The notes beneath the pieces are model-generated. The model was given only the letters and a program-made list of their open reading frames with translations, had not been told where the DNA came from and did not search any database. A program made the translations under genes and the position numbers. This document shows, piece by piece, positions 1 through 22,804 of a stretch of 23,572 nt of DNA. Source of the DNA: a virus; IMG/VR virus record IMGVR_UViG_3300042398_001708, positions 1 through 23,572 of that record, one strand, 5' to 3'. Each line of letters starts with the position of its first letter. Within the stretch, counting starts at the first letter, position 1.

Positions 1-2437
1 CTTCCGGTGTATTATTACGCTCATCGCAGACGATAAGATAATCATATAGACCATCCGCTACTTTTACTCTCTCGAAGAACGGCGCAAGAGTGTTAACAAC
101 TTGCGTTCTTGTAAAGAGTGTGTTATTTTCGAAAATAAAGAACTTCATTACTGACTTAGTTGCTTTTTCAAGATATAAGAAGTTTCTTCTTACATTAATA
201 CGATCAAACGCACTTGGCTTCTTAAGCAACGTCTTTTGACCGAAGAAAACAATGCCTTGATCGGGGAACGTTGTAATAGGGTTTAAGCTAACTGTATAAA
301 GATCATCACGCTGTCTTTGGTTAGGTACAAGTGCAACATCAAGAGCATTTGTTACAATGCCTCTGTTAAATCCTGCTGGCGCGCCCCACGGACCGATATC
401 TGCGTCTGTTGAAACCATCTTCGCTGCAGCAAAGCCAGACGATGGAACATATGCGTAAATGCCCGCATTATCATCGTAAACTTTAAAGTAGTTTGCATAA
501 ACTGTAGCGTACGATGTATTAGCCATTTCAAATTGGTGTCTCAACGCCCAATAAATATCTACTGAGAAGTTCTTACTAGGATTATTAATTACCTTACTGT
601 CTTTACCTGAAACAAGAATCTGTCTGATAGGATCAGCAATATAAAGAATATCACCTCTACCACCGTCCTTAATAGGACCGGCGAAAGTTGCATATTTACT
701 AAAGATAGCGTTATAAGCATCACGCGCACTTGTATCTACTAACTCATTTGAAGTTCTAAGAGCTTCAATACCTGGAGTTGTTTTGGTATCGTCGAAGTAA
801 GAGCTCATTGAAGCAGCAGCTGTGTTAGTATAAGTCCAAATCGTACCTAACCCACCTTCAGCAATAATATCTATATCGAAAATATCGGAGTTTCTAACTC
901 TATCTAAAGCGCGTTGAAGTTTATTAGGGACATTACCGATTGTTTTTGCTGTTACTTTAGCTGGTCCGTATGCACCAAGCGGGAACAATGAATCGGCATA
1001 ACCAATTTGATACGCAGCTGCAGAAAGCTGTGTTGTATGAATACCAAAAGAGTTAAACGCTGCTGTTTGATTATTCTCAATAGTAACATACGCCGATGAG
1101 AGAGTGGACCTTGCTGCTTGATAAGCAGTGTTTCTAACTGCTTCAGCGTCCGCACTCAGTGCTACAGAGGTTAGTGATAGATTGTAAGTTGCTAAAGCGG
1201 CAGCTGACGCAGCTGTTGCTATAGTTAACGCACCTGCTGAAGCTACGTTAGCTGTAGTAGTAACAGCAGAAAGCGCTGTTTCGAGTTGTTTTGAAATAAT
1301 TCTTACTTTATTCTTTGGTGTGCCATCATCATTTAACAATACACCGTCAAATTGATTTGACATATAAGGATTTACCAAAATATCGATATTTCTCGAATTA
1401 TTTTCAAGATTCTCGAGGAAGAAGTTTATTGCTTCACCACCTCTTTCGTTGCTAATTTTTCTGTTATAGCCAATAGAGCCGTTAAATCCTTCTTCAAGAA
1501 TAGCACCAAGAGAACTAGCATCAGTTCCAAATACCGATGATCTAAGCTTAAACAAGCCGAGATTTAAAGTATCATTGAAAGAATTATTAGCGATATTATA
1601 ACCTGTTATTTTTTCTTCCATTATTTGCGAGATAGAATCTACAGCAGGGTTATCGCCAGCGGCTGATGTAGCAGATAAAGCGAAATCAAGGCGTGATTTC
1701 GGTATTGCTACGAAAGATGTTAACGGTGTTGTTGAATTTGCAGATTGTGCAACAGTTACAACACTTCTAACTGCATCAAAGTTTGTAGCAGGGTTAATAT
1801 TTGTATTGTCTGCTAGGCCAAGATAATACCCGCCAAAGCGATCATCAATTGTTGTTTGGCCTTTATTTACAACAATAATACCTGCACTACCAAGGCTAGA
1901 AATAGCTGTAAATGCTGTAGCAGGTGTGTTAGACCAGTCAAATGCTTGACCGTTCATTATCTTTAAATACTCATCAGGCGTTACACTAAATTGGGTTGGT
2001 TTACCGATGAGATAAGTAGCACCAGCTGTACCATTTGTAAACGTTGAGCTACTTCCCGAACCAGTTAACGCCTCAGACAATGTACTATTTGCTGAAGCGC
2101 TTTTAAAAACACTAACAGGGTAAGCAAGAAGACCTACAGATGAACCAAAGCCTTCGCCGCAATCACAACCATATGGCAATCTGTTAACTAAGAGTTTCGA
2201 TTGCGAATCAAGAATTGCTTTTACAGTGTGGAAAAAGTATCTTTCAGCTGCTGATTTCGGCGTACCGTAGATACGTTCGAATTCTGTTAAACTTGAAATT
2301 CCAAGCACTTCATCAGTAGGTCCTTGATCAGAAAACCCTGTTGTGTAAACTGTTGTGCCTGCTGGTGTAGGAACTCTCAAAGAGAGATCTCTTTCTTGGA
2401 TTTCAACCCCCGGTGATTGTATAATGCGTTTAGCCAT
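1..2437 (-). CDS. gp18: Contractile tail sheath protein (T4 gp18-like), 3' end cut by window
   Basis: Forms the contractile sheath around the tail tube. The frame runs open from ATG at 2437 to the window edge, giving more than 812 residues against 659 in T4 gp18, so the C-terminus is missing. The start reads MAKRIIQSPGVEIQERDLS, the usual sheath opening (S/P-G-V-E-x-x-E-x-D). Near the C-terminal side are PWGAPAGFNRG and VCDERNNTPE, both hallmarks of T4-like sheaths. Residues about 380-490 (bases about 965-1300) are an Ala/Ser/Thr-rich stretch that looks like an extra domain. The ATG lies exactly 5 bases after a late promoter octamer CATAAATA, and no Shine-Dalgarno sequence is visible. The gene follows the tube gene on the same strand after a short gap. 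Family call from motifs; no alignment was run. Confidence 0.93.
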   Translation of the reverse strand, partial: MAKRIIQSPGVEIQERDLSLRVPTPAGTTVYTTGFSDQGPTDEVLGISSLTEFERIYGTPKSAAERYFFHTVKAILDSQSKLLVNRLPYGCDCGEGFGSSVGLLAYPVSVFKSASANSTLSEALTGSGSSSTFTNGTAGATYLIGKPTQFSVTPDEYLKIMNGQAFDWSNTPATAFTAISSLGSAGIIVVNKGQTTIDDRFGGYYLGLADNTNINPATNFDAVRSVVTVAQSANSTTPLTSFVAIPKSRLDFALSATSAAGDNPAVDSISQIMEEKITGYNIANNSFNDTLNLGLFKLRSSVFGTDASSLGAILEEGFNGSIGYNRKISNERGGEAINFFLENLENNSRNIDILVNPYMSNQFDGVLLNDDGTPKNKVRIISKQLETALSAVTTTANVASAGALTIATAASAAALATYNLSLTSVALSADAEAVRNTAYQAARSTLSSAYVTIENNQTAAFNSFGIHTTQLSAAAYQIGYADSLFPLGAYGPAKVTAKTIGNVPNKLQRALDRVRNSDIFDIDIIAEGGLGTIWTYTNTAAASMSSYFDDTKTTPGIEALRTSNELVDTSARDAYNAIFSKYATFAGPIKDGGRGDILYIADPIRQILVSGKDSKVINNPSKNFSVDIYWALRHQFEMANTSYATVYANYFKVYDDNAGIYAYVPSSGFAAAKMVSTDADIGPWGAPAGFNRGIVTNALDVALVPNQRQRDDLYTVSLNPITTFPDQGIVFFGQKTLLKKPSAFDRINVRRNFLYLEKATKSVMKFFIFENNTLFTRTQVVNTLAPFFERVKVADGLYDYLIVCDERNNTPE

Positions 2438-2442
2438 AAAAT

Positions 2443-2450
2443 TATTTATG
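2443..2450 (-). promoter_or_regulatory. T4-type late promoter octamer for the sheath gene
   Basis: CATAAATA on the minus strand, 5 bases (ATTTT) before the sheath ATG at 2437. By T4 geometry transcription would start at the A of the ATG, giving a leaderless mRNA. Confidence 0.75.
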
Positions 2451-2468
2451 GCTAGCTTAATTATTTTT

Positions 2469-3047
2469 TTAGTAATTTATAAGTTTAGTGTGAAGCTGCG
2501 AATAAACAAACGTAAACGATGATTGTATCTCTTCTGCTTCTCTGTAATTATAATTTATACCGCCTAAGATAGTGGGAAAAGCACGCTTATATGTAAATTG
2601 CACACGCTTGTTATCATATTCATCGAGACCAAAGACTGTTAGATCAGCTTGATAATCTTTAAATCTATCATCTGTTATTAAATTGCGCTTATCAAAAGTA
2701 CCTGTTTTTTCATCGTGAAGTAAATTTAACCAGCTGTATATTACCCAGTAATTATTATAAGAGTTATCTACAGTAAAATTTACAGTTACAGGTGGGAAGG
2801 GGCTTCTCGAATGAGTAGAATTATATAAAGTACTACCACCGTAGCGTATCTCAAGAGCTGGCACTGTTAGCTCTGGAACCACGGTACCGTAAATAGAAAA
2901 TTGAATAGCATCTTGTATTACTGTGCTACTTTTCCTATCTGTATGTGTATTAATTTTTTGTAAAGCAGGTGGTAGAGTAAAAACCATCTTAAACTTATCT
3001 ACACGTGATTTATTAAGTGTAGATTGTTGTAACGCATTAGTAGCCAT
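2469..3047 (-). CDS. gp19: Tail tube protein (T4 gp19-like)
   Basis: Probable major tail tube subunit, 192 residues from MATNALQQSTLNKSRVDKFK (T4 gp19 is 163). A β-rich protein with the tube-family pattern: an N-terminal strand KFKMVFTLP, a central VVPELTVPALEIRYGG segment, and a C-terminal half ending in KRAFPTILGGINYNY then SSFTFVYSQL, resembling the conserved 'aFPt...i.....F.y' end of gp19/gp54-type proteins. I place the start at 3047, not the longer ATG at 3074, because the octamer AATAAATA (3060-3053) lies between them, exactly 5 bases before 3047. The 3074 start would lie upstream of the predicted transcription start and overlap the terminase. Position between terminase and sheath supports the role. 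A gp54-like tube-cap protein is the main alternative. Confidence 0.75.
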   Translation of the reverse strand: MATNALQQSTLNKSRVDKFKMVFTLPPALQKINTHTDRKSSTVIQDAIQFSIYGTVVPELTVPALEIRYGGSTLYNSTHSRSPFPPVTVNFTVDNSYNNYWVIYSWLNLLHDEKTGTFDKRNLITDDRFKDYQADLTVFGLDEYDNKRVQFTYKRAFPTILGGINYNYREAEEIQSSFTFVYSQLHTKLINY

Positions 3048-3052
3048 AAGTA

Positions 3053-3060
3053 TATTTATT
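3053..3060 (-). promoter_or_regulatory. Late promoter octamer for the tail tube gene
   Basis: AATAAATA on the minus strand, spacer TACTT, then ATG at 3047. The terminase stop codon TAA (3058-3056) is embedded in the octamer, so the two genes share bases. Confidence 0.72.
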
Positions 3061-4762
3061 GTAGTCGCATCCAACCTTCAGCCTGTAGATCGGCTATATC
3101 GTCTATCGCGCTTTCCTCACCCATACCAAAAACAATAGCTGGTACGTAGTTTGAACCTATCCCCATAATTTCATTATCAAGATATATAGACGTTGACTGC
3201 TCGAACATTGCGACTCCGAAATCCATCGGCTCGATTAATATCGGCTTGCCCTGCTCATCTAATTCTACAACATCAAAATACCGCTCTGTCAATTCTTTTT
3301 CAAGAATATAGAGAGCATATATTAAAGACATAACTCTATCATCATGCGTGGTACCCTTAGCTCTCCACACTCCGTTTGGATACCGTACAAAATCTTTAAG
3401 CTCTTTTAATGTTTCTATATCTCGAAATTGTACCGCCTTAACCTCATTTACAAAATAACGCATATTTAATACGCCCTTATACTTAGTGTTTGTATGCGCG
3501 ATCATGCCCATCTGAGGCCTCTGCCTATTAGCGACTTTAGCACCGTACGATACTACCTTTTCATACCCCATATCAAAAGCTAGTCTATCTACTACCTGAG
3601 CGCCGCAATTATTACGTTCGATAAGAGCAAGGGGAGATCCCCAATTTCTTAAAACACTGTATACCTTATTTGCAAACTCTAGCGGTGGCATTACTCTAGT
3701 GTGGTAAACAGCTACCTGTTTAATAGCTCTAATATCAGTTATATCTAGAATCTGTATAACAGAAGCATCAATCCCTACTCCTTCAGATATATCCACCCCG
3801 GCTACATAAATTCTAGACGGATCTGGCTCTTCCCATATTTTATAATGCCCGTCATCTAAAATAATTTTCGCTGGAGTACACTGCTGCGATAAATTATAAA
3901 ATAACTCTTCATCGATAGATGAATCTCCAAGCGAGAGAAATTGACATTCATACTCTTGCAAGAAAGACTCCATACTGCCTAAAGCTTTAAGCTGTTCTTG
4001 CTTCCATCGCTCATCTCTACCTGGCACCTCTGACCAGATGACCTTTTCACAAACAAATCCATTCTCATTCCTATCAGCACCATCTACCAACTTGTAAAAG
4101 AGATTACCTGTACCGTTAGGCGTTGATGCTATTAATACTTTTGATTTTTTAGATCGTGAGATAGTAGGGAATACCGATCTCCAGAAATCCTCGAGTATGG
4201 ATTCTGGTTCGATGAAAGCCATCTCATCAATAATAATACAATTGATAGAGGCACCACGAGCTGCAGATCCGGTAGTGGTGCTGATGCTTATACGTGATCC
4301 ATTTTCAAATTCGCATGAAGTCTTGCCATACTCTTTAACACCTGGTTTCAGCCAGTTAGGTAATTCTTCATATGCTAGTCTTATTCTCCTAAAAATTTCT
4401 ATAGCTGTTGCTTCTTTATTAGCTACAATAACTATATTTTGATAATCATTAAAGCATGCAATCCAAAGCGCGTATATAGTAAGTACAGTAGTCTTACCTA
4501 CCTGTCTACTTGCAAGTAATATAGCTTTTCTGTTATCTCTTATAGTTCTTAAGCATCTTTTTTGATAAGGGAACAACTCAATACATACTTTACCAGCATC
4601 TGGATCAATAATATAGAAAAAATTCTCAGCAAAATGTAAAAGGTTTTGTTTACTCTTTTTAAGATGATTAATCATCTCTTTCGTATACTCATCCTTCCAG
4701 TGCTTATTTGGAAGATTAGGATTACCTAAATAAAATTCGTTTTTTGTAGATTTAGCAGGCAT
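3056..4762 (-). CDS. gp17: Terminase large subunit (T4 gp17-like packaging ATPase/nuclease)
   Basis: DNA-packaging motor that translocates and cuts phage DNA at the portal; 568 residues (T4 gp17 is 610). N-terminal ATPase: Walker A-type SRQVGKTT at residues 85-92, Walker B CIIIDE at 175-180 and coupling motif STPNG at 213-217. C-terminal RNase H-like nuclease: acidic residues in AGVDISEG (D324), LIERNNCG (E382) and THDDR (D474/D475). All expected catalytic elements are present, so it looks functional. It is divergent from the gene at 4779, with only 16 bases between the start codons, and its stop overlaps the tube promoter. No octamer sits at the standard spacing. A CATAAATA on the minus strand at 4827-4820, inside the divergent gene, is a possible but weak promoter that would give a leader of about 50 bases. 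Confidence 0.97.
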   Translation of the reverse strand: MPAKSTKNEFYLGNPNLPNKHWKDEYTKEMINHLKKSKQNLLHFAENFFYIIDPDAGKVCIELFPYQKRCLRTIRDNRKAILLASRQVGKTTVLTIYALWIACFNDYQNIVIVANKEATAIEIFRRIRLAYEELPNWLKPGVKEYGKTSCEFENGSRISISTTTGSAARGASINCIIIDEMAFIEPESILEDFWRSVFPTISRSKKSKVLIASTPNGTGNLFYKLVDGADRNENGFVCEKVIWSEVPGRDERWKQEQLKALGSMESFLQEYECQFLSLGDSSIDEELFYNLSQQCTPAKIILDDGHYKIWEEPDPSRIYVAGVDISEGVGIDASVIQILDITDIRAIKQVAVYHTRVMPPLEFANKVYSVLRNWGSPLALIERNNCGAQVVDRLAFDMGYEKVVSYGAKVANRQRPQMGMIAHTNTKYKGVLNMRYFVNEVKAVQFRDIETLKELKDFVRYPNGVWRAKGTTHDDRVMSLIYALYILEKELTERYFDVVELDEQGKPILIEPMDFGVAMFEQSTSIYLDNEIMGIGSNYVPAIVFGMGEESAIDDIADLQAEGWMRLQ

Positions 4763-4765
4763 TTA

Positions 4766-4773
4766 TATAAATA
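4766..4773 (+). promoter_or_regulatory. Late promoter octamer for the acidic scaffold-like gene
   Basis: TATAAATA, spacer ATTAT, then ATG at 4779. It lies in the 16-base gap between the divergent terminase and scaffold-like genes. Confidence 0.75.
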
Positions 4774-4778
4774 ATTAT

Positions 4779-5738
4779 ATGTCAAGTATGAAAAAGAAAG
4801 ACATAAATAGTCTAGGTGCTATTTATGGCGATATCCTCAATAACATTAAAAAGAACCTAGTAAAAGAATCTAAAGTAAAAGAAGAGATAGGTGAAGCTCC
4901 TCTACAAAAAGGAGGTCCGCAAGAAACAGCAGGTTATAAGCCTACTAAAGTAGACAGACGTAAAATGTCTAAAAAGGAGCTCGAAGATAATCTCTATAAT
5001 ATTAAAGATCTCTCTGAAGAAGATGAAGAAACAGCGAAGAAAGCTAAAAAATCTAAAAAAGATTACGATAAAGATGGTGTTGTAGAAACCCCTGAAGAAG
5101 AATATAAAGGCTCAAAAGATAAAACTATAAAAACAACTTTACAAAAAGAAAGTAATAAAGAAAGTAGAAAAATTGCACGGAGAAGCCTAAATAATTTTAT
5201 GAGAAAAAAATCTATTTTTGACAAACTTTATGAAAATGTAATGTTTGACGGTCCGCAGCAAACTAGCGGTGAAGATGATCTTAATGCACTTGGCATTGAT
5301 GATGCTACTCCTGACGATGAGCTAGGCAGCGAAGGTGAAGACGAAGTAACGATCACACTTGATCGCGACACAGCAATGAAACTTTATGAAGTTCTCGGAG
5401 CATGCTGCGGTGAGACCGGCGAAGGTGAAGACGAAATGGGCGGTGAAGACGAAATGGGCGGTGAAGACGAAAGTGGATTCGGTAGTTATGGTGATAACGA
5501 AGAAGACGAAGAAAACCTCGGTAATGCTTCTACCTTCTCAAAAACTATTGATTATGGTAAGAGCAACAAAGTAGGTAACCTAAGACCATCAGGCGGCACT
5601 GCATCATCAGCTGTAACTGATAAAGTAGGCAACGACGGTGAACACGGCCATGCTCTTGTTAATGGCAAAAAGCCTGATATGGGTAAAAATAACAAAGTCG
5701 GAAACCTCAAAACAGGTCAAGTAGCTTTTCAACGCTAA
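4779..5738 (+). CDS. Acidic, low-complexity phage protein with EF-hand-like loop; scaffold/prohead-core candidate
   Basis: A 319-residue protein of unknown function. The N-terminal half is Lys/Glu-rich and probably helical or disordered. Residues 95-106, DYDKDGVVETPE, fit the canonical EF-hand loop DxDxDGxxxxxE. A strongly acidic segment follows, with a tandem GGEDEM repeat encoded by an 18-base DNA repeat (5424-5470). The C-terminal part carries KVGN three times (SNKVGNL, TDKVGN, NNKVGNL), each in a Gly/Asn-rich setting. Charge, low complexity and position between terminase and neck genes suggest a prohead core/scaffold or other capsid-associated protein, which is inference. The start is fixed by a late octamer 5 bases upstream; a second ATG at 4788 is less likely. 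A strong terminator follows the stop. Confidence 0.85.
   Translation: MSSMKKKDINSLGAIYGDILNNIKKNLVKESKVKEEIGEAPLQKGGPQETAGYKPTKVDRRKMSKKELEDNLYNIKDLSEEDEETAKKAKKSKKDYDKDGVVETPEEEYKGSKDKTIKTTLQKESNKESRKIARRSLNNFMRKKSIFDKLYENVMFDGPQQTSGEDDLNALGIDDATPDDELGSEGEDEVTITLDRDTAMKLYEVLGACCGETGEGEDEMGGEDEMGGEDESGFGSYGDNEEDEENLGNASTFSKTIDYGKSNKVGNLRPSGGTASSAVTDKVGNDGEHGHALVNGKKPDMGKNNKVGNLKTGQVAFQR
5424..5470 (+). repeat. 18-base tandem repeat in the acidic gene
   Basis: GGTGAAGACGAAATGGGC occurs at 5424-5441 and 5442-5459, with a partial third copy at 5460-5470. It encodes GEDEMG units in frame, so copy-number change would lengthen or shorten the acidic tract without a frameshift. Confidence 0.9.
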
Positions 5739-5756: not shown

Positions 5757-5791
5757 AAAAAAAGCCCAGTAGCTAGCTACTGGGCTTTTTT
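5757..5791 (+). terminator. Strong intrinsic terminator (perfect palindrome, A and T tracts)
   Basis: Seven A's, then GCCCAGTAGCT and its exact reverse complement AGCTACTGGGC with no unpaired loop in the 22-base palindrome (5764-5785), then T's to 5791. The flanking A tract makes it bidirectional in principle. It ends the acidic gene, and the next late promoter starts two bases later. Confidence 0.92.
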
Positions 5792-5792
5792 G

Positions 5793-5800
5793 TATAAATA
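5793..5800 (+). promoter_or_regulatory. Late promoter octamer for the 123-residue gene
   Basis: TATAAATA, spacer ATAAT, then ATG at 5806. It directly abuts the upstream terminator, forming a terminator-promoter cassette. Confidence 0.78.
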
Positions 5801-5805
5801 ATAAT

Positions 5806-6177
5806 ATGATTAGCTTTAAAGAGTATCTATTAGAATACGCGACAAAGCAGAATAGCCGGTTTTTTGGTATATCTAAACTTAGAGCAGGTAACAATGGTAA
5901 ATTGTTAGATGATCCTCATGATAGGAAAATAAAAACTTCTTTCCCTCAAGTTTACAACCACAAGCACCCTATAATTAATAATATATGCCAAGGTAAAGCA
6001 AATAATGTACAAATGTCAGGTGCGCCTTTACTATCTATCTTAAATCTATATAACACACAGTTTAAACCTGGTGTCAAAACGTTAGGAAACTCAGATGTTG
6101 AAATAGAAATGTATGAAGATGAGGAAGGTCAGCAAAGAGGAATTCTAAGGAATAGAAAGAATAAAAATGGCTTGTAA
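5806..6177 (+). CDS. Small late protein with capsid-targeting-like N-terminus, unknown function
   Basis: A 123-residue basic protein that I do not recognise as a whole. It begins MISFKEYLLEY, close in pattern to the capsid-targeting leader of T4 internal proteins (for example MKTYQEFIAE), and shares that pattern with the DUF5661 protein at 22439. This suggests, as inference, a virion-packaged or prohead-associated protein. The C-terminus is rich in Arg, Lys and Asn. The gene has its own late octamer 5 bases before the ATG. Its last 11 bases overlap the start of the neck protein gene in another frame, so the two are likely co-transcribed and translationally coupled. Confidence 0.8.
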   Translation: MISFKEYLLEYATKQNSRFFGISKLRAGNNGKLLDDPHDRKIKTSFPQVYNHKHPIINNICQGKANNVQMSGAPLLSILNLYNTQFKPGVKTLGNSDVEIEMYEDEEGQQRGILRNRKNKNGL

Positions 6178-9900: not shown

Positions 9901-11517
9901 ATTTATAACCGGTGATTCGCGCTGCGTGTTAAATGCACTGAGCGTGTTAGGAGACCAGCCAGCGTAACTTTCCTCTGTAAAATATTGATAGCTTGATGTA
10001 GGGGGGTTAGTAGAAAAGAAATTTTCTAAAGCTTTAACATTGCACACAGGCCCTGGAAGCTCAATAAAATTAGAGGGCCACGTTGAAGTTCCACTCCACG
10101 AACGTAAATGCAAGGTAGGTATATTAATTTTATCTTTCGGCAAAACATTACACTTATTAAAATTACCAGCTGCTCTAACCATTATGCCGCCCTCTCTAAT
10201 AATTTCATCCACTAAGCTATTAACAGAAACAACAGTTGCATCGAGCAATGTAGCGTATTGATAAGCTGCTTCAAACCAACCCCCGTAAATATCTGAAGTA
10301 TGATTTTTCCACCATGGAGAAGGACTCCTAATATATCCCCAACTATTATTAATAATAGTTGGTCGATTTATACCAAGCTGCTTTTTGCGCTTAATAAAAG
10401 CTTTAATAAGCTTAAGTGCCTGTATTACAGTAATACCATCTTTTGTATAAGTTGTAATGCTTTTTAATGAATATATCCTACACCCCGGCGCCCATCCACA
10501 CGTATTGCCTCCAATAATTGATGCACAAAACGTACCGTGCCCATCTATGTCGGAATAATAATTTGGTGGTAATGTACTTACTATTTTTTTATTCGAATCA
10601 TCAACATATGTTGTCCAATCTTCTCGTATAACGCGACTCGTGCCGTCAGGGTTTAAAAATTCTGGGTGATTTAACTCTACACCTGAATCTAGTACTATTA
10701 CATCAACATTTTCGCCTATATTTTTTGACGAAAGATCAAATCCTAAACTATATGGATATGTGTTCGTATCACCAGCAACAGGGGTAAAATGAGTATATAG
10801 TCCATAATTACGAGCTTTTGCTCCTGTGTAAGTGCTAAGAGGCAAGCAATAGCTTGCCAATTCATTAAGATCGTAAAATATCGTTCCGTCTACTTTAAAA
10901 TCGCCATATGATATATCATTTAACCATGTTGCATATATCGGTGGTAAAATACCAAACCTACTTTTTCCAATCGCAGGATATATTTTACGGTCTAGCGCTA
11001 ATTTGACACCTTCTTGTATTTCATCTTCAAGCTCCACGCACACGACGCTTTCGAGAGAATTTATAGATAAAGCTTGCTCACCTGTTACATCTAAAAATAA
11101 AAGATTGGTATCGTGGTAGAAATTAAACTCGTCTATAGGCTCCTTAATACAATCATCTAGTTCATCGCAATAATTACAAAGTTTATCGCGCACCTCGCAC
11201 TTGCAATCGCCGCGTACTGTAACTATTGCTCTGCGCTTATCTGTAAAATTATACTTGTTGTTTAGTGTATCTAATTTAAATTGACTGCTAGTAACGGTGT
11301 GTTGCGAGGGCAGTATAGCGGTGTGAAATGTATTAAAACTGTTTGATAGGTTACTATTAACGTTCATTGTAATAGGCTCTATATCTGTAGAACCCATTCC
11401 TGTCTTTTGCGGTTTGTATATGAATGGACTTAGAGGTAAGGCTTGTGCTAACGAGTTATTAATTAAATCATTATTAAAAGCACTCTTTCTAGGCAGCATA
11501 TTTTGATAATCAAGCAT
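6937..11517 (-). CDS. Giant subtilisin-family serine protease (S8) with long C-terminal extension
   Basis: A 1526-residue protein with a complete subtilase triad: Asp277 in VIVLDSGVELNHPEF, His327 in DGHGTFCASIIGG and Ser622 in ASGTSFACPQVVG, with oxyanion Asn452 in VRAAGN. Residues about 95-170 resemble an I9-like propeptide (two β-α units ending SVVCVELEDEIQ) and contain a Cys cluster (C105, C107, C114, C117, C123). After about residue 650 there are nearly 900 aromatic- and Asn/Ser/Thr-rich, probably β-structured residues that I cannot assign. No signal peptide is evident, fitting an intracellularly made virion protein rather than a secreted enzyme. It is third in a cluster with a fibre-like protein and a trypsin-fold protease. 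A late octamer at 11548-11541 predicts an 18-base leader. Role, possibly cutting host surface or phage structural proteins, is inference. Confidence 0.93.
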   Translation of the reverse strand: MLDYQNMLPRKSAFNNDLINNSLAQALPLSPFIYKPQKTGMGSTDIEPITMNVNSNLSNSFNTFHTAILPSQHTVTSSQFKLDTLNNKYNFTDKRRAIVTVRGDCKCEVRDKLCNYCDELDDCIKEPIDEFNFYHDTNLLFLDVTGEQALSINSLESVVCVELEDEIQEGVKLALDRKIYPAIGKSRFGILPPIYATWLNDISYGDFKVDGTIFYDLNELASYCLPLSTYTGAKARNYGLYTHFTPVAGDTNTYPYSLGFDLSSKNIGENVDVIVLDSGVELNHPEFLNPDGTSRVIREDWTTYVDDSNKKIVSTLPPNYYSDIDGHGTFCASIIGGNTCGWAPGCRIYSLKSITTYTKDGITVIQALKLIKAFIKRKKQLGINRPTIINNSWGYIRSPSPWWKNHTSDIYGGWFEAAYQYATLLDATVVSVNSLVDEIIREGGIMVRAAGNFNKCNVLPKDKINIPTLHLRSWSGTSTWPSNFIELPGPVCNVKALENFFSTNPPTSSYQYFTEESYAGWSPNTLSAFNTQRESPVINVGCVFPENNFGFYHENKIINEKSGCLNRGERGSLFIKSEYSNFGETIDLYACGYNVIGATATGSDMTWYNALNDKYGVASGTSFACPQVVGCLVQYLNDNLNATYTDCKDWLYANALSGRIAEFDNTKTVRSTTALFSGSNTANLTSFKLPLIKNYNNYFDEVYNDIGYNNVTILNTTTAVQLPWIYDWKLNSAWHESDGYVFLPALHIYSFSMPVYNREASAVFHISSFANPDTVGYNWNNYNTPYYDLSSFVYEYWWKLSNSVLPLPIVDSYYLQNPNYIGNEIRVFKKHSTALVYLTSIPHPGNIINSDVLVPKTYRYSPITAPSARKVAMPLVGGLGQQRWTDILNEDETLNTQNFVSSCHITFKNNTLVVGDAGTDCWYIYNKDQNDKFTLTQVISSLELQDDIVDYYTEHERQYPNILKYSDIFRGFGRRRAGKIALSENGEYLAIPMHGYTKRSYLSRNATLSGFALSRGVTVPLSALLDVNKYDGNSFIFDVHYGTGSVTALYRRDNTTYKLLSTLQTSYALSAADTIGNANRTLSSFIGYNNNSKNTHCIFSGNSALYLSYYAMGVIETQTISGSRGNVEQVWPFWGNDGGHFEIYELDNNIVSGPTSYKADTSFVIGTSAITNTSYFCGSGFSQYWADFVGAPPGYELYASNFKQQRNFTNHFYNYYENNNNIFSLDNGIMRNYNYTFNGGGQIYHLVASTEYYSLSPMFGAVSIAPTYKDLNGYGYTINLHASGGIGTTTIKTPRTHTIPVVNLYTGMINHENWNIRIAYNDKQWFDRRSITYIAKHNESGNILEVEESTGLVYFSVPDNTSETGYKTFTILHGFTNQYPFMCSRWPVITASYLNGVGDGNFNNFYGSSPVRCCFHDSTTFSILYANESLPTDYQSIHTSPKTARFVTFRINSTDFEDGDSNITAEHVKYNKNIFINGHNIYNSPNLLLQPYPKKYIIADNDSETINFEGRVYKRTSYTKYPVTNT

Positions 11518-11540: not shown

Positions 11541-11548
11541 TATTTATA
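11541..11548 (-). promoter_or_regulatory. Late promoter octamer for the subtilase gene
   Basis: TATAAATA on the minus strand, 23 bases before ATG 11517. This is the exception to the 5-base rule and would give an 18-base leader without an obvious Shine-Dalgarno. The upstream protease stop codon TAA (11546-11544) lies inside the octamer. Confidence 0.65.
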
Positions 11549-13293: not shown

Positions 13294-13869
13294 TTAAATA
13301 AGATCCCAGTTATCATCACCAATGTATAACAACTGAGCAGTATTTTTTGGGTCTATAACATTAGCCGCATATGTATTATCGTAATTAATAACAACGTTAC
13401 TATCTAGCGGTAAAATGGTGAGCGCGCTAAGACCAGCGTTTCGTATAGTAATAGAAGCGCCTGGTGTGAAGTTGTTATTATCTGTAGGTACATAAATCGT
13501 ATGCACATCATTAAAAGATTTGCGTATATAACCTGAAAAATTTTCCGGCAGGATAGTATAATCCTGGCTATCAATGTTGTATATGTTGGTTATATTACCC
13601 GTCACACCCCAGGCAGCGCTGCTAGATTGCACTGTAGTGTTAAGTACTTGTAACGATGAGTCAATCTCATTAGCATACTCTATAGACGCGGAACCACTAG
13701 TCAGCTGCCCAAAAGAACTCGTAAGAGAGCGTGCAACATCTGTTGAAAGTGTATTTGTAATTGTAAATATAGTTGCTCTTCTTGTACGAACGCCATCATC
13801 TATAACGAGAAATTCATATCCATTTACTGTTGTAGCGATATCTAAGCTAGCTATTTTAATAGTTGGCAT
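13294..13869 (-). CDS. Tail-fibre-like structural protein (191 residues)
   Basis: The N-terminus (MPTIKIASLDIATTVNGYEFLVI through TRRATIFTITNTL) resembles the short attachment motif seen at the start of many phage fibres and in this window's large fibre (ISELPPNRLPYTGSEEFPLV...TRKGTL). The middle (residues about 55-85) is Ser/Thr/Ala-rich. The C-terminal half is β-structured with ASITIRNAGLSALTILP and ends AQLLYIGDDNWDLI, a typical fibre/structural C-terminus. It is probably a small tail fibre or baseplate accessory subunit, but the exact role is unknown. It is the first gene of a three-gene unit with the two proteases. A late octamer lies 5 bases before the ATG, immediately after a terminator. 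Confidence 0.82.
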   Translation of the reverse strand: MPTIKIASLDIATTVNGYEFLVIDDGVRTRRATIFTITNTLSTDVARSLTSSFGQLTSGSASIEYANEIDSSLQVLNTTVQSSSAAWGVTGNITNIYNIDSQDYTILPENFSGYIRKSFNDVHTIYVPTDNNNFTPGASITIRNAGLSALTILPLDSNVVINYDNTYAANVIDPKNTAQLLYIGDDNWDLI

Positions 13870-13874
13870 ATTTA

Positions 13875-13882
13875 TATTTATA
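13875..13882 (-). promoter_or_regulatory. Late promoter octamer for the fibre-like/protease operon
   Basis: TATAAATA on the minus strand, spacer TAAAT, then ATG at 13869. Its first T is the last base of the preceding terminator's T tract. Confidence 0.8.
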
Positions 13883-13916
13883 AAAAAACCGTTGATTCGT
13901 AGTGAATCAACGGTTT
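13882..13916 (-). terminator. Intrinsic terminator after the 81-residue gene
   Basis: On the minus strand AAACCGTTGATTC pairs perfectly with GAATCAACGGTTT across a 5-base loop (13916-13886), continuing into T's down to 13882. It would stop transcripts from 14187 before the next operon promoter. Confidence 0.88.
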
Positions 13917-13941: not shown

Positions 13942-14187
13942 TTATGGCACTCTAAAATGTCTTTTAACAGCTTCTACTACATCTAAATTAGTCCACTCGC
14001 GAGGATTATCGTAATTGTCATCAGATAACTCTGATAGCTCTATTCGCTCGCTATCTACAACAGCGATTACCTTTTTCTCGCCCGGTAAATCAATAATTCT
14101 ACTAATTACAATTTCGGTTATAGTCTTTGTTACTTCTGGCTGGGTAACAATAACACGTGGTTCATCTAAGCTGATCTGTAAACTCAT
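13942..14187 (-). CDS. Small orphan late protein, 81 residues, unknown function
   Basis: Not recognised. It begins MSLQISLDEPRVIVTQPEVT, has a β-like middle (IVISRIIDLPGEKKVIAVVD) and an acidic stretch ELSELSDDNYDN, and ends WTNLDVVEAVKRHFRVP. The pattern suggests a small αβ or structural accessory protein. It is a complete transcription unit: a late octamer 5 bases before the ATG and a hairpin terminator 26 bases after the stop. Being real is supported mainly by that framing. It sits between the sulfotransferase gene and the fibre/protease operon. Confidence 0.75.
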   Translation of the reverse strand: MSLQISLDEPRVIVTQPEVTKTITEIVISRIIDLPGEKKVIAVVDSERIELSELSDDNYDNPREWTNLDVVEAVKRHFRVP

Positions 14188-14192
14188 AATTA

Positions 14193-14200
14193 TATTTATT
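14193..14200 (-). promoter_or_regulatory. Late promoter octamer for the 81-residue gene
   Basis: AATAAATA on the minus strand, spacer TAATT, then ATG at 14187. Confidence 0.75.
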
Positions 14201-18105: not shown

Positions 18106-18114
18106 AAGTTTATA

Positions 18115-21100
18115 TTAAATTAAAGTTGTTGTAAGGGCTCCTAAATCTGTAACACGTATTCTCCATTTTGTACCATTTGGCGATTTAAGGATAATCCCGT
18201 TACTGCTATTAGTTACATCAATATCACCTGCTGCACTAACTGTCCCTTGTAGCGTCAAGCCTGATGTTTGTCCGATATTAAGCTGAGAAATTGTAGCTGT
18301 AAGTGCTGTAAGTGTCGAAGATGATAGATTTTGCGCTATGGTGTTTCTACCTATATAGACATCGCCTTGTGAGCTTAAGTTATTTACATATGTAAAGTTA
18401 GAGCTTAATGCAGTAATATTAGACCCTATGATAAATGCATTTGACCTCGTATTAGTATCATTACCAATACCGCCCGCTATAGTAGAATAATCGCCATTTA
18501 CTATGTTACCTTCTCCTAAAGCTACTGAAGCTCTACCTGATGCTACTGATGAAAGACCGGTAGTAAACGAGCCTAATCCACTAGCTCTACCGCTAAACCC
18601 ACCACCTATAGTAGATTGATAACCACTAGCTGTGTTATTGTAACCACCACCTACAGTAGAGGAACCACCACTAGCTGTGTTATTGTAACCGCTACCTATA
18701 AAAGAATAAGGTCCACTAGCTCTACCGCTAAACCCGCCTGCTATAGTAGAAAAATTACCACTAGCTGTGTTATCGAAACCGCTACCTATAGTAGATCCAA
18801 AGCCACTAGCTTTATTAATTTGTCCGCCTCCTATAGTAGATCGATAACCACTAGCTATATTACAGCGACCACCGCTCACAGTAGCAGCATCTTCACTAGC
18901 TATATTATTTTGTCCGCCTCCAACAAAGGAACAAACACCACTAGCTCTACTACTAAAGCCACCCGCTATAGTTGAATAGGTAGCATTAGCTATATTGCAT
19001 TGACCACCGCCTATAAAAGAACCAGCTCCACTAGCTGTATTACAGCCGCCACCAACCATAGCAGATCGATAACCACTTGCTGTATTAACTGCGCCACCAC
19101 CTATAATAGACAAATTACCACTAGCTGCATTCATCGTACCACCACCTATAGTAGAGTAATTACCGCTAGCCCTACTACTAAAGCCACCGCCAATAGTACT
19201 AAAATCATTATTAATACAATTGCTTTTACCACCTGCTATGATAGAACTTTCACCATTAACTGTATTTTGAAATCCTCCTGCTACTGTTGAGTATATTCCA
19301 GAAGCCGTACTGCTAAACCCACCGGCTATTGTCGTAAATGAATTATTCGCGCGATTTTCACGACCACCGCCTATATAACTACCGTTACAAAGTGCTAAGT
19401 TTTCTGCACCACCACCAACAGTTGAAACATAACCACACGCGCGGTTACCACTGCCACCTCCTATTGTAGCAAAAATATGATTTGCTACGTTATTATAACC
19501 ACCTCCGATAAACGAATGCTCACTATCACCGTAAATGCAGTTATCAGTACCACCTACTATTGCACCATATAAGCTTTCGACTGTGTTTAATGTACCCGAA
19601 CCAATAAACGTACCTTCGCCAAGCGCATCATTACATGTTCCATTCACAACGGTGGAATAATCGGCTGTTGCTCTGTTACTTAGACCGTTTACTATAGCCG
19701 AGTAACTGCCACTTGCTATATTACTATTACCGCCTACCGCAGCACTATAAATACCGGTAGCAAAATTACTAATACCATTAACAACTGTAGAATAATCACC
19801 GCAAGCAATATTGTAATATCCCTGTGCAATCATTGATGTAATACCTGTAGCAGTGTTATCATACCCACCACCTATGAAAGATTGATTAAGAGCGGTATTA
19901 CTTGTACCTGTTACTACACCTGCTGTTCCGTTAGCACAGTTTTGTGTACCACCACCTACAAATGAGTAATTACCAAACGCGCTGTTAGCAAACCCAGTTG
20001 TTACACCAGAGCAGTTACCCGTTGCGTAGTTATTTTCACCGCCAAGAACGCTTGCTTGGTTGCCAGTTACACGGTGATTTTTGCCTATAGCTATAGCTGG
20101 CTGGCAGCCGTTTTGCCAAACAATACCTGCAATATACGTACCATCGTTAAACACGCTTAATTGAGCCGTGGAAGTTGCTACCGTGTTAGTAACGAAAAGC
20201 GATCCACGAGCACTAATGCTACCTGTTGTAGTTATATCGCGCGTTGCATAAAGAGCTTCAACGTGTGTTGTGTTTGCTGATACAGATCTAATATTTGTTC
20301 CAATTATAAATGAATTATTGTGTGTAGCGCAGTTCGAACAACCACCGAGAATGCCTGTAAAGTTGCCAGATGCTGTATTGCGAAATCCGCTACTTATTGT
20401 CGAATAGCAGCCAGATGCTGTATTGCAAAACCCACTACCTATACTAGCACGGCAACCAGATGCTATATTACGGCTACCTCCACCTACGACAGAATCTCCC
20501 CCACTTGCACAATTGCAGTGACCGCCACCTACTGTAGAACATACACCATTAGCTGTATTGCGATCTCCACCACCTATAGTAGAATTACAACCACCTGCAA
20601 TATTTAAAACACCGCCGCCAACAGTTGTATGATAGCTACTAGCTGTATTACTACAACCACCTGCTATAGTTGAAAAAGAACAACAACTTACATTGTTACA
20701 ACCACCACCTATAAAGGTGCAGTTACCTACACTTCGGTTATTTTGACCTCCTACCACAGTGCTTGCATTACCTGCTGCTGTATTGCAAATACCCCCAACA
20801 GCGGTCGTACCGCCTCCACTAGCCACATTACACGCGCCTCCTAGTATACTTGAACTAAACCCACTAGCCTGCCCGCTAAACCCCCCAGCTACAGTGGAGT
20901 TTTGGCCAGAAGCGTTATTTTCTCTACCACCACCTACTACACTTGACGAGCTTGCTCTATTACAGTAACCACCAGCAATTGTTGCAAAGCATCCATTATT
21001 AATAATATTTTCAGCGCCACCGCCTATAACAGCATTACCGATAGGTAAATCTCCGCATATTTTATTACCCGCACCACCAACAATAGAGCTACAATTTACA

Positions 21101-21447
21101 TTAACATCATTTTGACACCCTCCACCTATAAAAGAACAACTACCACAAACTGTATTACAGCGACCACCGGCTATTGATGAGTCTATACCTGTGTTAGTAT
21201 GTCGTATACCAGCGATTAAATTACCACTAATTGTCTGTGATGTTGTAAAGAAGTTATCTTGCGTCTTTAGCGCAAAACGTCCACTTGTTGCCGCGAACTC
21301 TGAATCAGCAAATAACGCTCCAGTTAGATAATTTACAAAAGAACTTAATGTTCCTTTTCTTGTTTCTGTATTTTGAACTAAAGGAAATTCTTCAGAACCC
21401 GTGTATGGTAATCTATTAGGTGGTAGTTCGGAAATTTTAATACCCAT
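18115..21447 (-). CDS. Large Hep_Hag/YadA-head-like repeat tail fibre, 1110 residues
   Basis: The N-terminus MGIKISELPPNRLPYTGSEE and following PLVQNTETRKGTLSSF form a phage-fibre attachment motif. Residues about 80-370 and 460-985 are 15-residue GGG/NTASG repeats. Between them (about 370-460) is a non-repeat module with FIIGTNIRSVSAN and a β-domain (SVFNDGTYIAGIVWQNG). A second related module (FIIGSNITALSSNFTYVNNL) precedes the C-terminal cap, which ends SPNGTKWRIRVTDLGALTTT. The protein thus looks like two fused repeat-plus-cap units. Cys is frequent. It probably forms a long trimeric fibre for host attachment. A late octamer CATAAATA lies exactly 5 bases before the ATG. No S74 chaperone domain is seen. 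Confidence 0.9.
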   Translation of the reverse strand: MGIKISELPPNRLPYTGSEEFPLVQNTETRKGTLSSFVNYLTGALFADSEFAATSGRFALKTQDNFFTTSQTISGNLIAGIRHTNTGIDSSIAGGRCNTVCGSCSFIGGGCQNDVNVNCSSIVGGAGNKICGDLPIGNAVIGGGAENIINNGCFATIAGGYCNRASSSSVVGGGRENNASGQNSTVAGGFSGQASGFSSSILGGACNVASGGGTTAVGGICNTAAGNASTVVGGQNNRSVGNCTFIGGGCNNVSCCSFSTIAGGCSNTASSYHTTVGGGVLNIAGGCNSTIGGGDRNTANGVCSTVGGGHCNCASGGDSVVGGGSRNIASGCRASIGSGFCNTASGCYSTISSGFRNTASGNFTGILGGCSNCATHNNSFIIGTNIRSVSANTTHVEALYATRDITTTGSISARGSLFVTNTVATSTAQLSVFNDGTYIAGIVWQNGCQPAIAIGKNHRVTGNQASVLGGENNYATGNCSGVTTGFANSAFGNYSFVGGGTQNCANGTAGVVTGTSNTALNQSFIGGGYDNTATGITSMIAQGYYNIACGDYSTVVNGISNFATGIYSAAVGGNSNIASGSYSAIVNGLSNRATADYSTVVNGTCNDALGEGTFIGSGTLNTVESLYGAIVGGTDNCIYGDSEHSFIGGGYNNVANHIFATIGGGSGNRACGYVSTVGGGAENLALCNGSYIGGGRENRANNSFTTIAGGFSSTASGIYSTVAGGFQNTVNGESSIIAGGKSNCINNDFSTIGGGFSSRASGNYSTIGGGTMNAASGNLSIIGGGAVNTASGYRSAMVGGGCNTASGAGSFIGGGQCNIANATYSTIAGGFSSRASGVCSFVGGGQNNIASEDAATVSGGRCNIASGYRSTIGGGQINKASGFGSTIGSGFDNTASGNFSTIAGGFSGRASGPYSFIGSGYNNTASGGSSTVGGGYNNTASGYQSTIGGGFSGRASGLGSFTTGLSSVASGRASVALGEGNIVNGDYSTIAGGIGNDTNTRSNAFIIGSNITALSSNFTYVNNLSSQGDVYIGRNTIAQNLSSSTLTALTATISQLNIGQTSGLTLQGTVSAAGDIDVTNSSNGIILKSPNGTKWRIRVTDLGALTTTLI
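18465..21210 (-). repeat. Arrays of 45-base repeats in the larger fibre gene
   Basis: Two arrays, about 18465-20065 and 20330-21210, separated by a non-repeat module. The units encode the same 15-residue motif as the neighbouring gene. Those in the 3' half of the gene (lower coordinates) are most similar to the smaller fibre; those nearer the 5' end are more diverged. Confidence 0.9.
18515..18600 (-). repeat. 86-base direct repeat, copy 2 (larger fibre)
   Basis: Matches 17330-17415 base for base as read, starting CCTAAAGCTACTGAAGCTC on the plus strand and ending CCGCTAAACCC. Confidence 0.9.
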
Positions 21448-21452
21448 GTGAT

Positions 21453-21460
21453 TATTTATG
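21453..21460 (-). promoter_or_regulatory. Late promoter octamer for the large fibre gene
   Basis: CATAAATA on the minus strand, spacer ATCAC, then ATG at 21447. It would drive both fibre genes and possibly the glycosyltransferase and sulfotransferase, since no terminator is seen between them. Confidence 0.75.
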
Positions 21461-21478
21461 GATTTAGATAGGTTTTCT

Positions 21479-21484
21479 TATAAT
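21479..21484 (+). promoter_or_regulatory. Possible host-type -10 box for the nuclease gene
   Basis: TATAAT ends 9 bases before the preferred ATG at 21494, so the start point would fall about 3 bases before the codon. No good -35 box is visible at 17-18 bases. Weak call in an AT-rich region. Confidence 0.25.
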
Positions 21485-21493
21485 ATAAATTTA

Positions 21494-22195
21494 ATGATTA
21501 CCTTTGATCAAGACTCTCATACTTATACTAACTCTTCAACACAGGAAAAATATATTTCGGTAACTACTTTACTTGGTAAATACAAGCAACCGTTTGATAA
21601 GGAAAAGCATTCTCTACGTGTTGCAAAACGCGAAGGTATTTCGCAAGAGCTAGTACTAGAAATGTGGGATAAAGAAAATAAAAGATCGACAGACCGCGGA
21701 ACAAAAATACACAAGTTGATGGAAAATTATATTGACTTTGGTGAAAGGAAAGACGATTACAACTGGCTCTATAAATCATACGATAAAGCTGTTACACATA
21801 CAATAAGTAAGTTTAATAAGGTGTACAGTGAAAATTTGCTATATACACATAAATATAAGATCGCTGGAACAGCTGATTTAATTTACGATCACGGAGACTA
21901 CTTTACAATAGGTGACTTTAAAACAAATAAAAAATTTAACTATACGAGTGATTTTAATGAATACTTCAAAACACCAATAGACCATCTACCATATTGCGAA
22001 TTTAATAACTACGCACTGCAGATGTCATTATATGCGTATATGTATGAAGAGCTAACAGGTAAGAAATGTAAAAAAATCGTTGTTTTCTATTTGAATGAGG
22101 ACAAATGGCAATCAATTCACTGCAACTATCTTAAAAGCGACATACAAAAAATACTAACGCATTATTATGCAGATAATCTCATAATTTTAAATTAA
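21494..22195 (+). CDS. PD-(D/E)XK superfamily nuclease (phage exonuclease-like)
   Basis: A 233-residue predicted DNA nuclease. From the start at 21494 (MITFDQDSHTYTNSSTQEKY) the order is: the SVTTLLGKYKQPFD opening typical of these phage nucleases; RGTKIHKLMENYI (His73, Glu77); Glu113 before a strand; GTADLI (Asp128); IGDFKTNK (Asp141-x-Lys143, the D-x-K core); and a helix with ALQMSLYAYMYEE (Gln176). This is the RecB/Cas4/λ-exonuclease type of arrangement. A longer in-frame start at 21458 lies in the divergent fibre promoter and adds residues that do not look conserved, so I prefer 21494. Likely roles are recombination, DNA end processing or host DNA breakdown. It is divergent from the fibre gene. 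Confidence 0.88.
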   Translation: MITFDQDSHTYTNSSTQEKYISVTTLLGKYKQPFDKEKHSLRVAKREGISQELVLEMWDKENKRSTDRGTKIHKLMENYIDFGERKDDYNWLYKSYDKAVTHTISKFNKVYSENLLYTHKYKIAGTADLIYDHGDYFTIGDFKTNKKFNYTSDFNEYFKTPIDHLPYCEFNNYALQMSLYAYMYEELTGKKCKKIVVFYLNEDKWQSIHCNYLKSDIQKILTHYYADNLIILN

Positions 22196-22214
22196 TATAG
22201 CTTAAATAAAAACA

Positions 22215-22430
22215 ATGAAAAAGGAGACTCTTATTAAAAAATTTAACGCGCAGATTGACAAAATCCAGGATTGTATCGATGAAATTTCGACATTACTTGA
22301 AATAGAAAATGATGATGATGAACTTTCAGAAATGTCTGTAACGTTTAGGGAGCAGCTAGAAACGTGTCTAAGTGACAATGAAGAGTGTAATGCTAACGAT
22401 ATTGTCGAATATATTCGCGAGAATCTATAA
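22215..22430 (+). CDS. Small acidic helical protein, 71 residues, unknown
   Basis: Not recognised. MKKETLIKKFNAQIDKIQDC is followed by heptad-like helix and an acidic run (ENDDDELSE), then a second helix ending IVEYIRENL. It is probably a small helical or coiled-coil protein. A degenerate octamer CTTAAATA lies 6 bases before the ATG, so a weak late promoter is possible. Its stop TAA lies inside the late promoter octamer of the next gene. Confidence 0.7.
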   Translation: MKKETLIKKFNAQIDKIQDCIDEISTLLEIENDDDELSEMSVTFREQLETCLSDNEECNANDIVEYIRENL

Positions 22431-22433
22431 ATA
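22426..22433 (+). promoter_or_regulatory. Late promoter octamer for the DUF5661 gene
   Basis: TATAAATA, spacer TATGA, then ATG at 22439. An out-of-frame ATG at 22435 falls inside the spacer; the 5-base rule selects 22439. Confidence 0.75.
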
Positions 22434-22438
22434 TATGA

Positions 22439-22804
22439 ATGAAGGCATTTAAGTCATTCTTCAAAGAGGTTAATCCTGAAATCGATTACGACCCTGAAGA
22501 GCTAAAAAAGGGTATTGAAGTAGAACTAGAGCACACAAATTATAAAGCTATTGCTACTATAATAGCTAAACATCATTTAGCTGAAGACCCTGAATATTAT
22601 ATAAAGCTCGCAAATTGTGTAGAATCTAAGCCTAAGAGTGAAGATGCTGAAGATATTCATAAACCAGTGAGACCTGGTATTCTAAAAAGACAAGTATCTG
22701 GTAAAATGACTTGTACTAAAGCAAAATCTTTAAAATCAAAGCAAAAAAACAAAGGTAATAATACCGCTAAAGCTGCTCAACGATACCTTAATTATCACTG
22801 TTGA
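22439..22804 (+). CDS. DUF5661-like phage protein with capsid-targeting-like N-terminus
   Basis: A 121-residue protein. The core DPEELKKGIEVELEHTN, then AIATIIAKHHLAEDPEYYIKL, matches the DUF5661 pattern ('eel..GieVE.EHT...e.A..IA.dHLaE.p.YY..L'), a family common in phage genomes with unknown function. It is preceded by MKAFKSFFKE, similar to the start of the protein at 5806 and to T4 capsid-targeting leaders. The C-terminal third is strongly basic (KRQVSGKMTCTKAKSLKSKQ), which would suit DNA binding or packaging inside the head. A late octamer lies 5 bases before the ATG. A structural or internal head protein is inference; the family assignment is firmer. Confidence 0.82.
   Translation: MKAFKSFFKEVNPEIDYDPEELKKGIEVELEHTNYKAIATIIAKHHLAEDPEYYIKLANCVESKPKSEDAEDIHKPVRPGILKRQVSGKMTCTKAKSLKSKQKNKGNNTAKAAQRYLNYHC

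What the first reader, a model, noticed from the sequence alone, without database searches (positions are those of the whole stretch)
2435..22441. Late promoters at a fixed 5-base distance from the ATG predict leaderless late mRNAs
Eight genes (starts at 2437, 3047, 4779, 5806, 13869, 14187, 21447, 22439), on both strands, carry [TCA]ATAAATA with exactly 5 bases before the ATG. In T4 the octamer spans about -13 to -6, so +1 would be the A of the start codon. Shine-Dalgarno sequences are missing at these genes. The pattern suggests that a whole late regulon relies on leaderless translation initiation, unlike T4 itself.
Basis: partly seen in the sequence, partly recalled or inferred. Interest (0 to 1): 0.8.

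Follow-up and report, generated by a model that had tools for sequence, protein, structure and literature searches.

The report
Leaderless genes in T4-related phages
This environmental T4-related phage and its relatives place their late promoters so close to the genes that the messages should begin on the start codon itself, with no leader for the ribosome to land on, and in several relatives the early genes look the same.

Summary
All eight octamer-5-ATG sites exist; 300 random sequences give a mean of 0.26, maximum 3. In ten related IMG/VR contigs, 99 of 171 octamer-to-start distances are exactly 5 (80 of 140 without G001 and G002, which carry the window's region). In T4, Syn9, S-PM2, phiM12 and phiM9 it is 0 of 66, with 59 at 15-40.

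The base before the start codon is a pyrimidine in 91 of 94 such genes, and terminators abut some octamers, leaving no room for a leader.

Shine-Dalgarno motifs are near chance in the whole clade. Genes heading a run on one strand carry a promoter-like motif at the start codon in 145 of 170 cases, against 5 of 62 in five cultured T4-type phages. Part of these are sigma70-type promoters of early genes; that class is weak in some contigs and hardly seen in the window's own 74-kb parent contig.

Verdict: leaderless late mRNAs very likely; whole-phage leaderless expression plausible. No RNA data; host unknown.

The parts
2435..2450 (-). late octamer CATAAATA (2443-2450) + 5 bases + ATG (2435-2437) of the tail sheath gene (2-2437, cut by the window edge)
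   Evidence: sheath by tblastn
3045..3060 (-). late octamer AATAAATA (3053-3060) + 5 + ATG of the tail tube gene (2469-3047); the TAA in the octamer is the stop codon of the terminase gene (3056-4762)
   Evidence: tube = phrog_45, E 1.4e-19, terminase = phrog_2
4766..4781 (+). late octamer TATAAATA + 5 + ATG of a 319-aa gene (4779-5738), no PHROG family found
5793..5808 (+). late octamer TATAAATA + 5 + ATG of a 123-aa gene (5806-6177), no PHROG family found
5758..5791 (+). intrinsic terminator; one base lies between its T-run and the octamer at 5793, so the gene at 5806 has no room for a long leader
   Evidence: (MFE -23.3 kcal/mol, z -5.5)
13867..13882 (-). late octamer TATAAATA (13875-13882) + 5 + ATG of a 191-aa gene (13294-13869); a second octamer (13869-13876) overlaps it
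13886..13916 (-). intrinsic terminator hairpin directly upstream of the octamer at 13875-13882
   Evidence: (MFE -18.5 kcal/mol, z -5.9)
14185..14200 (-). late octamer AATAAATA + 5 + ATG of an 81-aa gene (13942-14187); GGGAG just upstream of the octamer
21445..21460 (-). late octamer CATAAATA + 5 + ATG of an 1110-aa gene (18115-21447), no match in the phage records and no PHROG family
22426..22441 (+). late octamer TATAAATA + 5 + ATG of a 121-aa gene (22439-22804), no PHROG family
11541..11548 (-). exception: octamer TATAAATA 23 bases upstream of the ATG (11517) of a 1526-aa gene

Best explanation
The octamers are T4-type late promoters, recognised by a gp55-like late sigma factor, placed so that RNA polymerase starts on the first base of the start codon. 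Late transcription units therefore make leaderless mRNAs (0, sometimes 1-4, leader bases), which a ribosome must take up at a bare 5' AUG or GUG without a Shine-Dalgarno contact. In several relatives early genes are built likewise from sigma70-type promoters (TTG 22 bases before TATAAT, TATAAT 11-15 before the start). Genes further down a transcript mostly have neither promoter nor SD but overlap or abut the gene before and are probably translated by coupling. Shown from sequence: spacing, promoter classes, near-chance SD, start-site base preference, abutting terminators, gp55 and clamp genes in relatives. Inferred: the actual 5' ends, translation of leaderless mRNA, coupling, and a host that tolerates SD-less initiation. 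The confidence below is for the late genes; I give about 0.6 to the early part.
For: Spacing exactly 5 in 99 of 171 sites and 5-7 in 133 in ten contigs, 0 of 66 at 5 in T4, Syn9, S-PM2, phiM12, phiM9. HATAAATAN5ATG: 113 in 12 related records against 7 for the reversed pattern (94 against 6 without G001, G002); 26 against 0 in the 170,908-base relative G129, where ATAAATA stands at distance 5 in 29 genes and the 20 other permutations of the heptamer in 0.8 on average. Base -1: T 74, C 17, A 3, G 0 of 94; T 24, C 5 of 29 in G129. Terminators abut 13 of 185 octamer genes, 61 of 20,000 random places. Promoter-like motif at the start of 145 of 170 head-of-run genes in ten contigs, 5 of 62 in five cultured phages. 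SD-like motifs: 65 of 667 non-octamer genes, 52.5 expected; T4 124 of 188, 39 expected. Sigma70 class: of 339 non-octamer genes in six contigs 58 have a TATAAT-like hexamer at -13/-12, 32 of them TTG at -35 to -33. gp55 gene: TTG-TATAAT in 42 of 42 distinct upstream regions. Named octamer genes are mostly structural, named sigma70-class genes mostly replication and metabolism. gp55 and clamp homologues.
Against: No RNA 5' end is known. In the window one octamer is at 23 and one octamer gene has GGGAG upstream. gp55 was not found in the window, G001, G002, G003, G007, G010-G012; gp33 in 0 of 12 records. At distance 6 the pyrimidine step is missing (A at -1 in about 15 of 26); at the gp55 gene -1 is A in 37 of 42, so some messages may have 1-3 leader bases. 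The purine at the sixth base after the octamer is clear in T4 (82% of 23) but in Syn9/S-PM2 (79% of 33) no higher than at the first base (79%), and in eight phiM12/phiM9 sites other positions score higher. TTG at -35 to -33 is scarce among the -13/-12 class in G003/G010 (4 of 31) and G006 (5 of 26), and TATAAT-like matches also rise at -9 and -6. G001 has only 2 strict sigma70-class genes of 51. G006 has 3 of 7 octamers at 5. T4 has one raw pattern match and S-PM2 two. SD motifs are slightly above chance in G010 (7 of 40, 3.1 expected). Start codons come from my own gene caller; relatives are not independent.
Confidence: 0.86

Rival explanations
1. The octamer at -13 to -6 is not a promoter but an AU-rich translation-initiation element, kept at a fixed distance because the ribosome or protein S1 reads it; transcription comes from further upstream.
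For: The clade has SD motifs near chance, and SD-poor hosts are known for A-rich upstream regions (recalled). The octamer sits where an SD would sit.
Against: A different pair of elements with a -35-like TTG occupies the same register at other genes, which is not a ribosome signal. The two classes split by gene function. Terminators abut some octamers. The -1 pyrimidine is a transcription-start signature.
Confidence: 0.05
2. These are T4-type late promoters, but the start point is shifted by a few bases in this clade, so messages carry short leaders or the true start codon is a later one.
For: A shoulder at 6-9 bases. gp55-gene promoters mostly one base further out.
Against: The pyrimidine-purine step falls on the start codon in 91 of 94 distance-5 genes, in the register in which T4 sites prefer a purine.
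Confidence: 0.07
3. Chance or AT-richness: an AT-rich genome often yields ATAAATA before ATG.
For: The octamer total in the window is not above chance.
Against: Random sequences give at most 3 sites against 8. Reversed pattern 7 against 113 in relatives. T4, also AT-rich (GC 0.363 in the stretch measured), lacks the peak.
Confidence: 0.01

Closest known systems
T4 late transcription (gp55/gp33/gp45; TATAAATA promoters)
   Same: Octamer, register of the start site, structural genes under it, gp55 and sliding-clamp homologues in relatives.
   Different: In T4, 16 of 24 octamers lie 22-32 bases before the start codon and genes carry SD motifs. Here the commonest distance is 5, SD is near chance, and gp33 was not found.
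Leaderless mRNAs of bacteria, archaea and phages (lambda cI recalled; mycobacteria, haloarchaea seen in the listings; PMC5312081 says in passing that phage transcripts are often leaderless)
   Same: Message expected to begin at AUG or GUG with no SD.
   Different: Here the property appears to cover a whole late regulon and, in several relatives, early genes, from two kinds of promoter.
Pelagibacter phages HTVC008M and Mosig, methylophage Melnitz-3
   Same: Cultured T4-superfamily phages with 7, 5 and 4 octamers at exactly 5 (control 1, 0, 0).
   Different: In HTVC008M and Mosig most other octamers sit further away and genes keep SD motifs (86 of 146 and 92 of 155): possibly an intermediate state. 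Melnitz-3 was tested by the pattern only.

Membership tests
T4 superfamily | T4-type large terminase, tail sheath and tube | tested here: met
   terminase 33-38% identical to the listed cyanophage, phiM9, phiM12 and HTVC008M proteins; sheath and tube matches
T4-type late regulon | TATAAATA-type promoter before structural genes | tested here: met
T4-type late regulon | gp55-like late sigma factor encoded | tested here: met
   3 of 12 related records (G004, G005, G006), E 1e-24 to 1e-26; G129 through locus L233; not found in the records that hold the window
T4-type late regulon | sliding clamp gp45 | tested here: met
   1 of 12 records (G006) by phrog_223; G129, G004, G005 by phmmer from it, not G003 or G001
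T4-type late regulon | coactivator gp33 | tested here: inconclusive
   0 of 12 records at E up to 1; a small protein, and the records are fragments
Leaderless mRNA | 5' end at or within a few bases of the start codon | not testable with these tools
   no RNA data; predicted
Leaderless mRNA | no Shine-Dalgarno at the gene | tested here: met
   SD-like motif in 3 of 133 octamer genes (distance 5-9) of ten related contigs, about 4 expected; in the window 0 of 7 tested, the eighth has GGGAG upstream of the octamer
Leaderless mRNA | AUG (or GUG) start | tested here: met
   ATG 85, GTG 9, TTG 0 of 94; weak evidence, since TTG is rare anyway (3 of 405 other genes)

The most novel reading that the evidence does not exclude
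A large uncultured branch of the T4 superfamily has given up 5' leaders and Shine-Dalgarno sequences. Late (gp55-type), early (sigma70-type) and, in G006, a third AAACACTA-type promoter class all place the start of transcription on or within about 3 bases of the start codon, and the remaining genes are reached by translational coupling. Such phages presumably infect hosts whose ribosomes load without SD. (Probability lowered from 0.6 to 0.5 on checking, because the -35 element of the early class is weak in G003/G010 and G006.)
Probability: 0.5. Interest if true: 0.83.

Novelty: new variant of a known kind. Interest (0 to 1): 0.73.

Why it matters
T4 is the textbook case of a phage whose mRNAs carry leaders and SD sites. 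A lineage that keeps the T4 late-promoter machinery but moves the promoters onto the start codons would show that translation entry can be rebuilt across a regulon by a shift of about 20 bases. It would sharpen start-codon prediction in such phages, give a sequence signature for SD-independent hosts, and point to cultured phages (HTVC008M, Mosig, Melnitz) in which a partial form can be tested. Ten paper searches in open-licence PMC text listed no paper on leaderless late mRNAs in T4-type phages that I recognised from titles and abstract starts; subscription papers are mostly absent, and the Syn9 transcriptome paper was not held, so this is not proof of absence.

Tried and rejected
Host: a scan of GTDB genomes with a terminase alignment gave 2 relatives of 217 candidate stretches: one on a contig of a Verrucomicrobia MAG (45%, locus GC 0.54) and one of a Cyclobacteriaceae MAG (34%); genes on the second locus carry SD motifs in 15 of 20 cases, so it is not of this type. 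A TTG-TATAAT-6-ATG pattern in 115 genomes of the first MAG's phylum gave matches in 36, at most 5 in one genome, no stand-out. Host left open. No tRNAs in the window.

Artefact of start choice: one search counts any ATG that opens 50 codons, without gene calling, and gives the same peak (T4 60-110 kb: none of 16 ATG at 5; one GTG/TTG at 5).

Literature: PMC2988020, section 3 part 1 of 5 read. PMC2984593, transcription section read: NATAAATA in cyanophages, no spacing given. PMC5312081, passages: phage transcripts 'often leaderless', AR9 leaders 26-491 nt. PMC9004378, PMC3037559, PMC6024815, PMC7892883: passages only, no octamer-to-start spacing in what I saw. All other papers: search listings only.

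Limits: G008 and G009 were not fetched; G010 and G012 were analysed over their first 40,000 bases. G001 and G002 carry the window's region, so their counts include the window's genes. In one search, 74 of 80 loci were evaluated (three with partial terminase left out, three too short downstream); 13 of the 74 need a later in-frame start than the first candidate. My notebook gave 109; the table sums to 113.
Full report
WHAT WAS CLAIMED AND WHAT IS THERE. The window is a 23,572-base IMG/VR virus record from a T4-superfamily phage: terminase, tail tube and sheath match T4-type families. The terminase is 33-38% identical to the best-listed cultured phages, so it is distant from them. All eight octamer-5-ATG sites are exact. 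Random sequences from a first-order Markov model of the window give a mean of 0.26 and at most 3 in 300. The octamer itself is not over-represented (18 against 14.0, sd 4.0); the distance is what is unusual. One further octamer stands 23 bases before the ATG at 11517.

Terminase relatives were fetched (111 found, best 80 kept). Twelve related records hold 113 HATAAATAN5ATG against 7 for the reversed pattern, 94 against 6 without G001 and G002, which carry the window's own region. With called genes in ten of them, 99 of 171 octamer-to-start distances are exactly 5 and 133 are 5-7. In T4, Syn9, S-PM2, phiM12 and phiM9, 0 of 66 are 5 and 59 lie at 15-40; HTVC008M is mixed with 7 of 20 at 5. The raw pattern does match once in T4 and twice in S-PM2. 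Without gene calling the picture is the same. The 170,908-base relative G129 has 26 pattern sites against 0 in the control; of 21 permutations of ATAAATA only the true one peaks at 5 (29, others 0.8 on average). G006 is the weakest for the strict octamer (3 of 7) but has TAAATA at -11 in 27 of 180 genes. At the gene after the terminase in 74 loci, TAAATA lies at -11 in 37 and at -12 in 17; 17 have none and 3 have one at -32.

WHERE TRANSCRIPTION SHOULD START. PMC2988020 numbers the first octamer base -13, so +1 is the sixth base after it. In T4 that base is a purine in about 82% of 23 sites and in HTVC008M in 85% of 13; in Syn9 and S-PM2 it is 79% of 33, no higher than at the first base, and in eight phiM12/phiM9 sites other positions score higher. 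In 94 clade genes at distance 5 (eight contigs), the base before the start codon is T 74, C 17, A 3, G 0, against T 233, A 114, G 33, C 25 in 405 genes without the motif; G129 gives 24 T and 5 C of 29; in the window it is T 6, C 1, A 1. This is the usual pyrimidine-purine start-site step (general knowledge), and it falls on the start codon. It is not seen at distance 6 (A in about 15 of 26). At 5806 and 13869 in the window a strong terminator ends just before the octamer; a third upstream region, that of 2437, has none. Over ten contigs this holds for 13 of 185 octamer genes (G000 and G001 share two) against 61 of 20,000 random places. At such genes a leader of 20 bases would begin inside a terminator.

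NOT ONLY THE LATE GENES. SD-like motifs are near chance in non-octamer genes too: 65 of 667 against 52.5 expected in ten contigs (G010 slightly above, 7 of 40 against 3.1), while T4 shows 124 of 188 against 39 and HTVC008M 86 of 146 against 36. Among 339 non-octamer genes of six contigs, 58 have a TATAAT-like hexamer at -13 or -12, and 32 of these have TTG at -35, -34 or -33, with 0-2 at any other position scanned. T4, Syn9, S-PM2 and HTVC008M have 1-5 such hexamers each. In G003/G010 the TTG is scarce (4 of 31) and in G006 modest (5 of 26); TATAAT-like matches also rise at -9 and -6. The late-sigma gene (best 80 of 575 loci; relatives of the G005 protein) has TTG 22 bases before a TATAAT-like hexamer that starts 11-15 before the start codon in 42 of 42 distinct upstream regions, 31 of them at -13, with A before the start in 37; early leaders may therefore be 0-3 bases. 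In G001, the window's 74-kb parent contig, only 2 of 51 genes fall in the strict sigma70 class, so the early design is not shown for the window's own phage.

WHICH GENES. PHROG scans covered 15 of 26 strict octamer genes and 10 of 17 strict sigma70-class genes of G005, and 3 of 27 and 2 of 7 of G004. Named octamer genes: tube, sheath (twice), tape measure, tail fibre, head-tail adaptor, head protease, and one weak exonuclease match. Named sigma70-class genes: primase, SSB, UvsX (twice), PhoH, QueD, QueE, dehydrogenase, aminotransferase. Eleven of the 30 had no family. The gp55 and clamp genes of G005 and the gp55 gene of G004 are also in the sigma70 class.

PROMOTERS HEAD THE RUNS. In ten contigs (window and G002 left out as duplicates), 145 of 170 genes that head a run on one strand have a promoter-like motif at the start codon when relaxed motifs are allowed; in T4, Syn9, S-PM2, phiM12 and phiM9 it is 5 of 62, in HTVC008M 3 of 6 and in Mosig 2 of 6. 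With strict motifs G129 alone has 19 of 36. In eight contigs, 384 promoterless genes with an upstream same-strand neighbour have a median gap of 2 bases and 165 overlap it; 173 octamer-type genes have a median gap of 22. In 27 of these 173 the gap is exactly 8, the geometry in which the TAA of the motif is the stop codon of the gene before, as at 3056 in the window. In G006 a box AACACTA lies at -22 in 25 of 38 genes that have it upstream, in front of a TATAAT-like element.

MACHINERY. A gp55 homologue is in G004, G005, G006 and G129 (L233); a clamp in G006, G129, G004 and G005. gp33 was not found in 12 records. The records holding the window lack gp55 in the part available.

CONCLUSION. The late messages of this phage are very likely leaderless. 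The same design probably extends to early genes in several relatives. How ribosomes load, the coupling of downstream genes and the host are inferred, not shown. The parts (T4 late promoters, leaderless mRNA) are known; the regulon-wide combination was not recognised in the papers listed by the searches made.

Noticed in passing
G006 contig (loci L106-L112), mostly about 87-137 kb: A third promoter-like design: AACACTA at -22 followed by a TATAAT-like element near -12, at this fixed distance from the start codon in 25 of 38 genes with the box upstream, all 38 on one strand; possibly an activator-dependent middle class.
   Followed up: partly
HTVC008M (KC465899), Mosig (MT647606), Melnitz-3 (MZ577098): Cultured phages with 7, 5 and 4 octamers exactly 5 bases before an ATG, while HTVC008M and Mosig otherwise use SD sites: a possible intermediate state.
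   Followed up: partly
window 3053-3060: The stop codon of the terminase gene is the TAA inside the late promoter octamer of the tail tube gene; the same geometry fits 27 of 173 octamer-type genes in eight contigs.
   Followed up: partly
L103:14506-14582 and L125:13571-13647: ARAGORN calls a tRNA with a four-base anticodon (aatg) inside a small tRNA cluster in two related contigs.
   Followed up: no
window about 5415-5475: The 319-aa protein of 4779-5738 has a short acidic tandem repeat visible in the DNA.
   Followed up: no
L196:825-2492: A related terminase (45%) on a contig binned to a Verrucomicrobia MAG, locus GC 0.54; a weak hint at hosts of distant relatives.
   Followed up: partly
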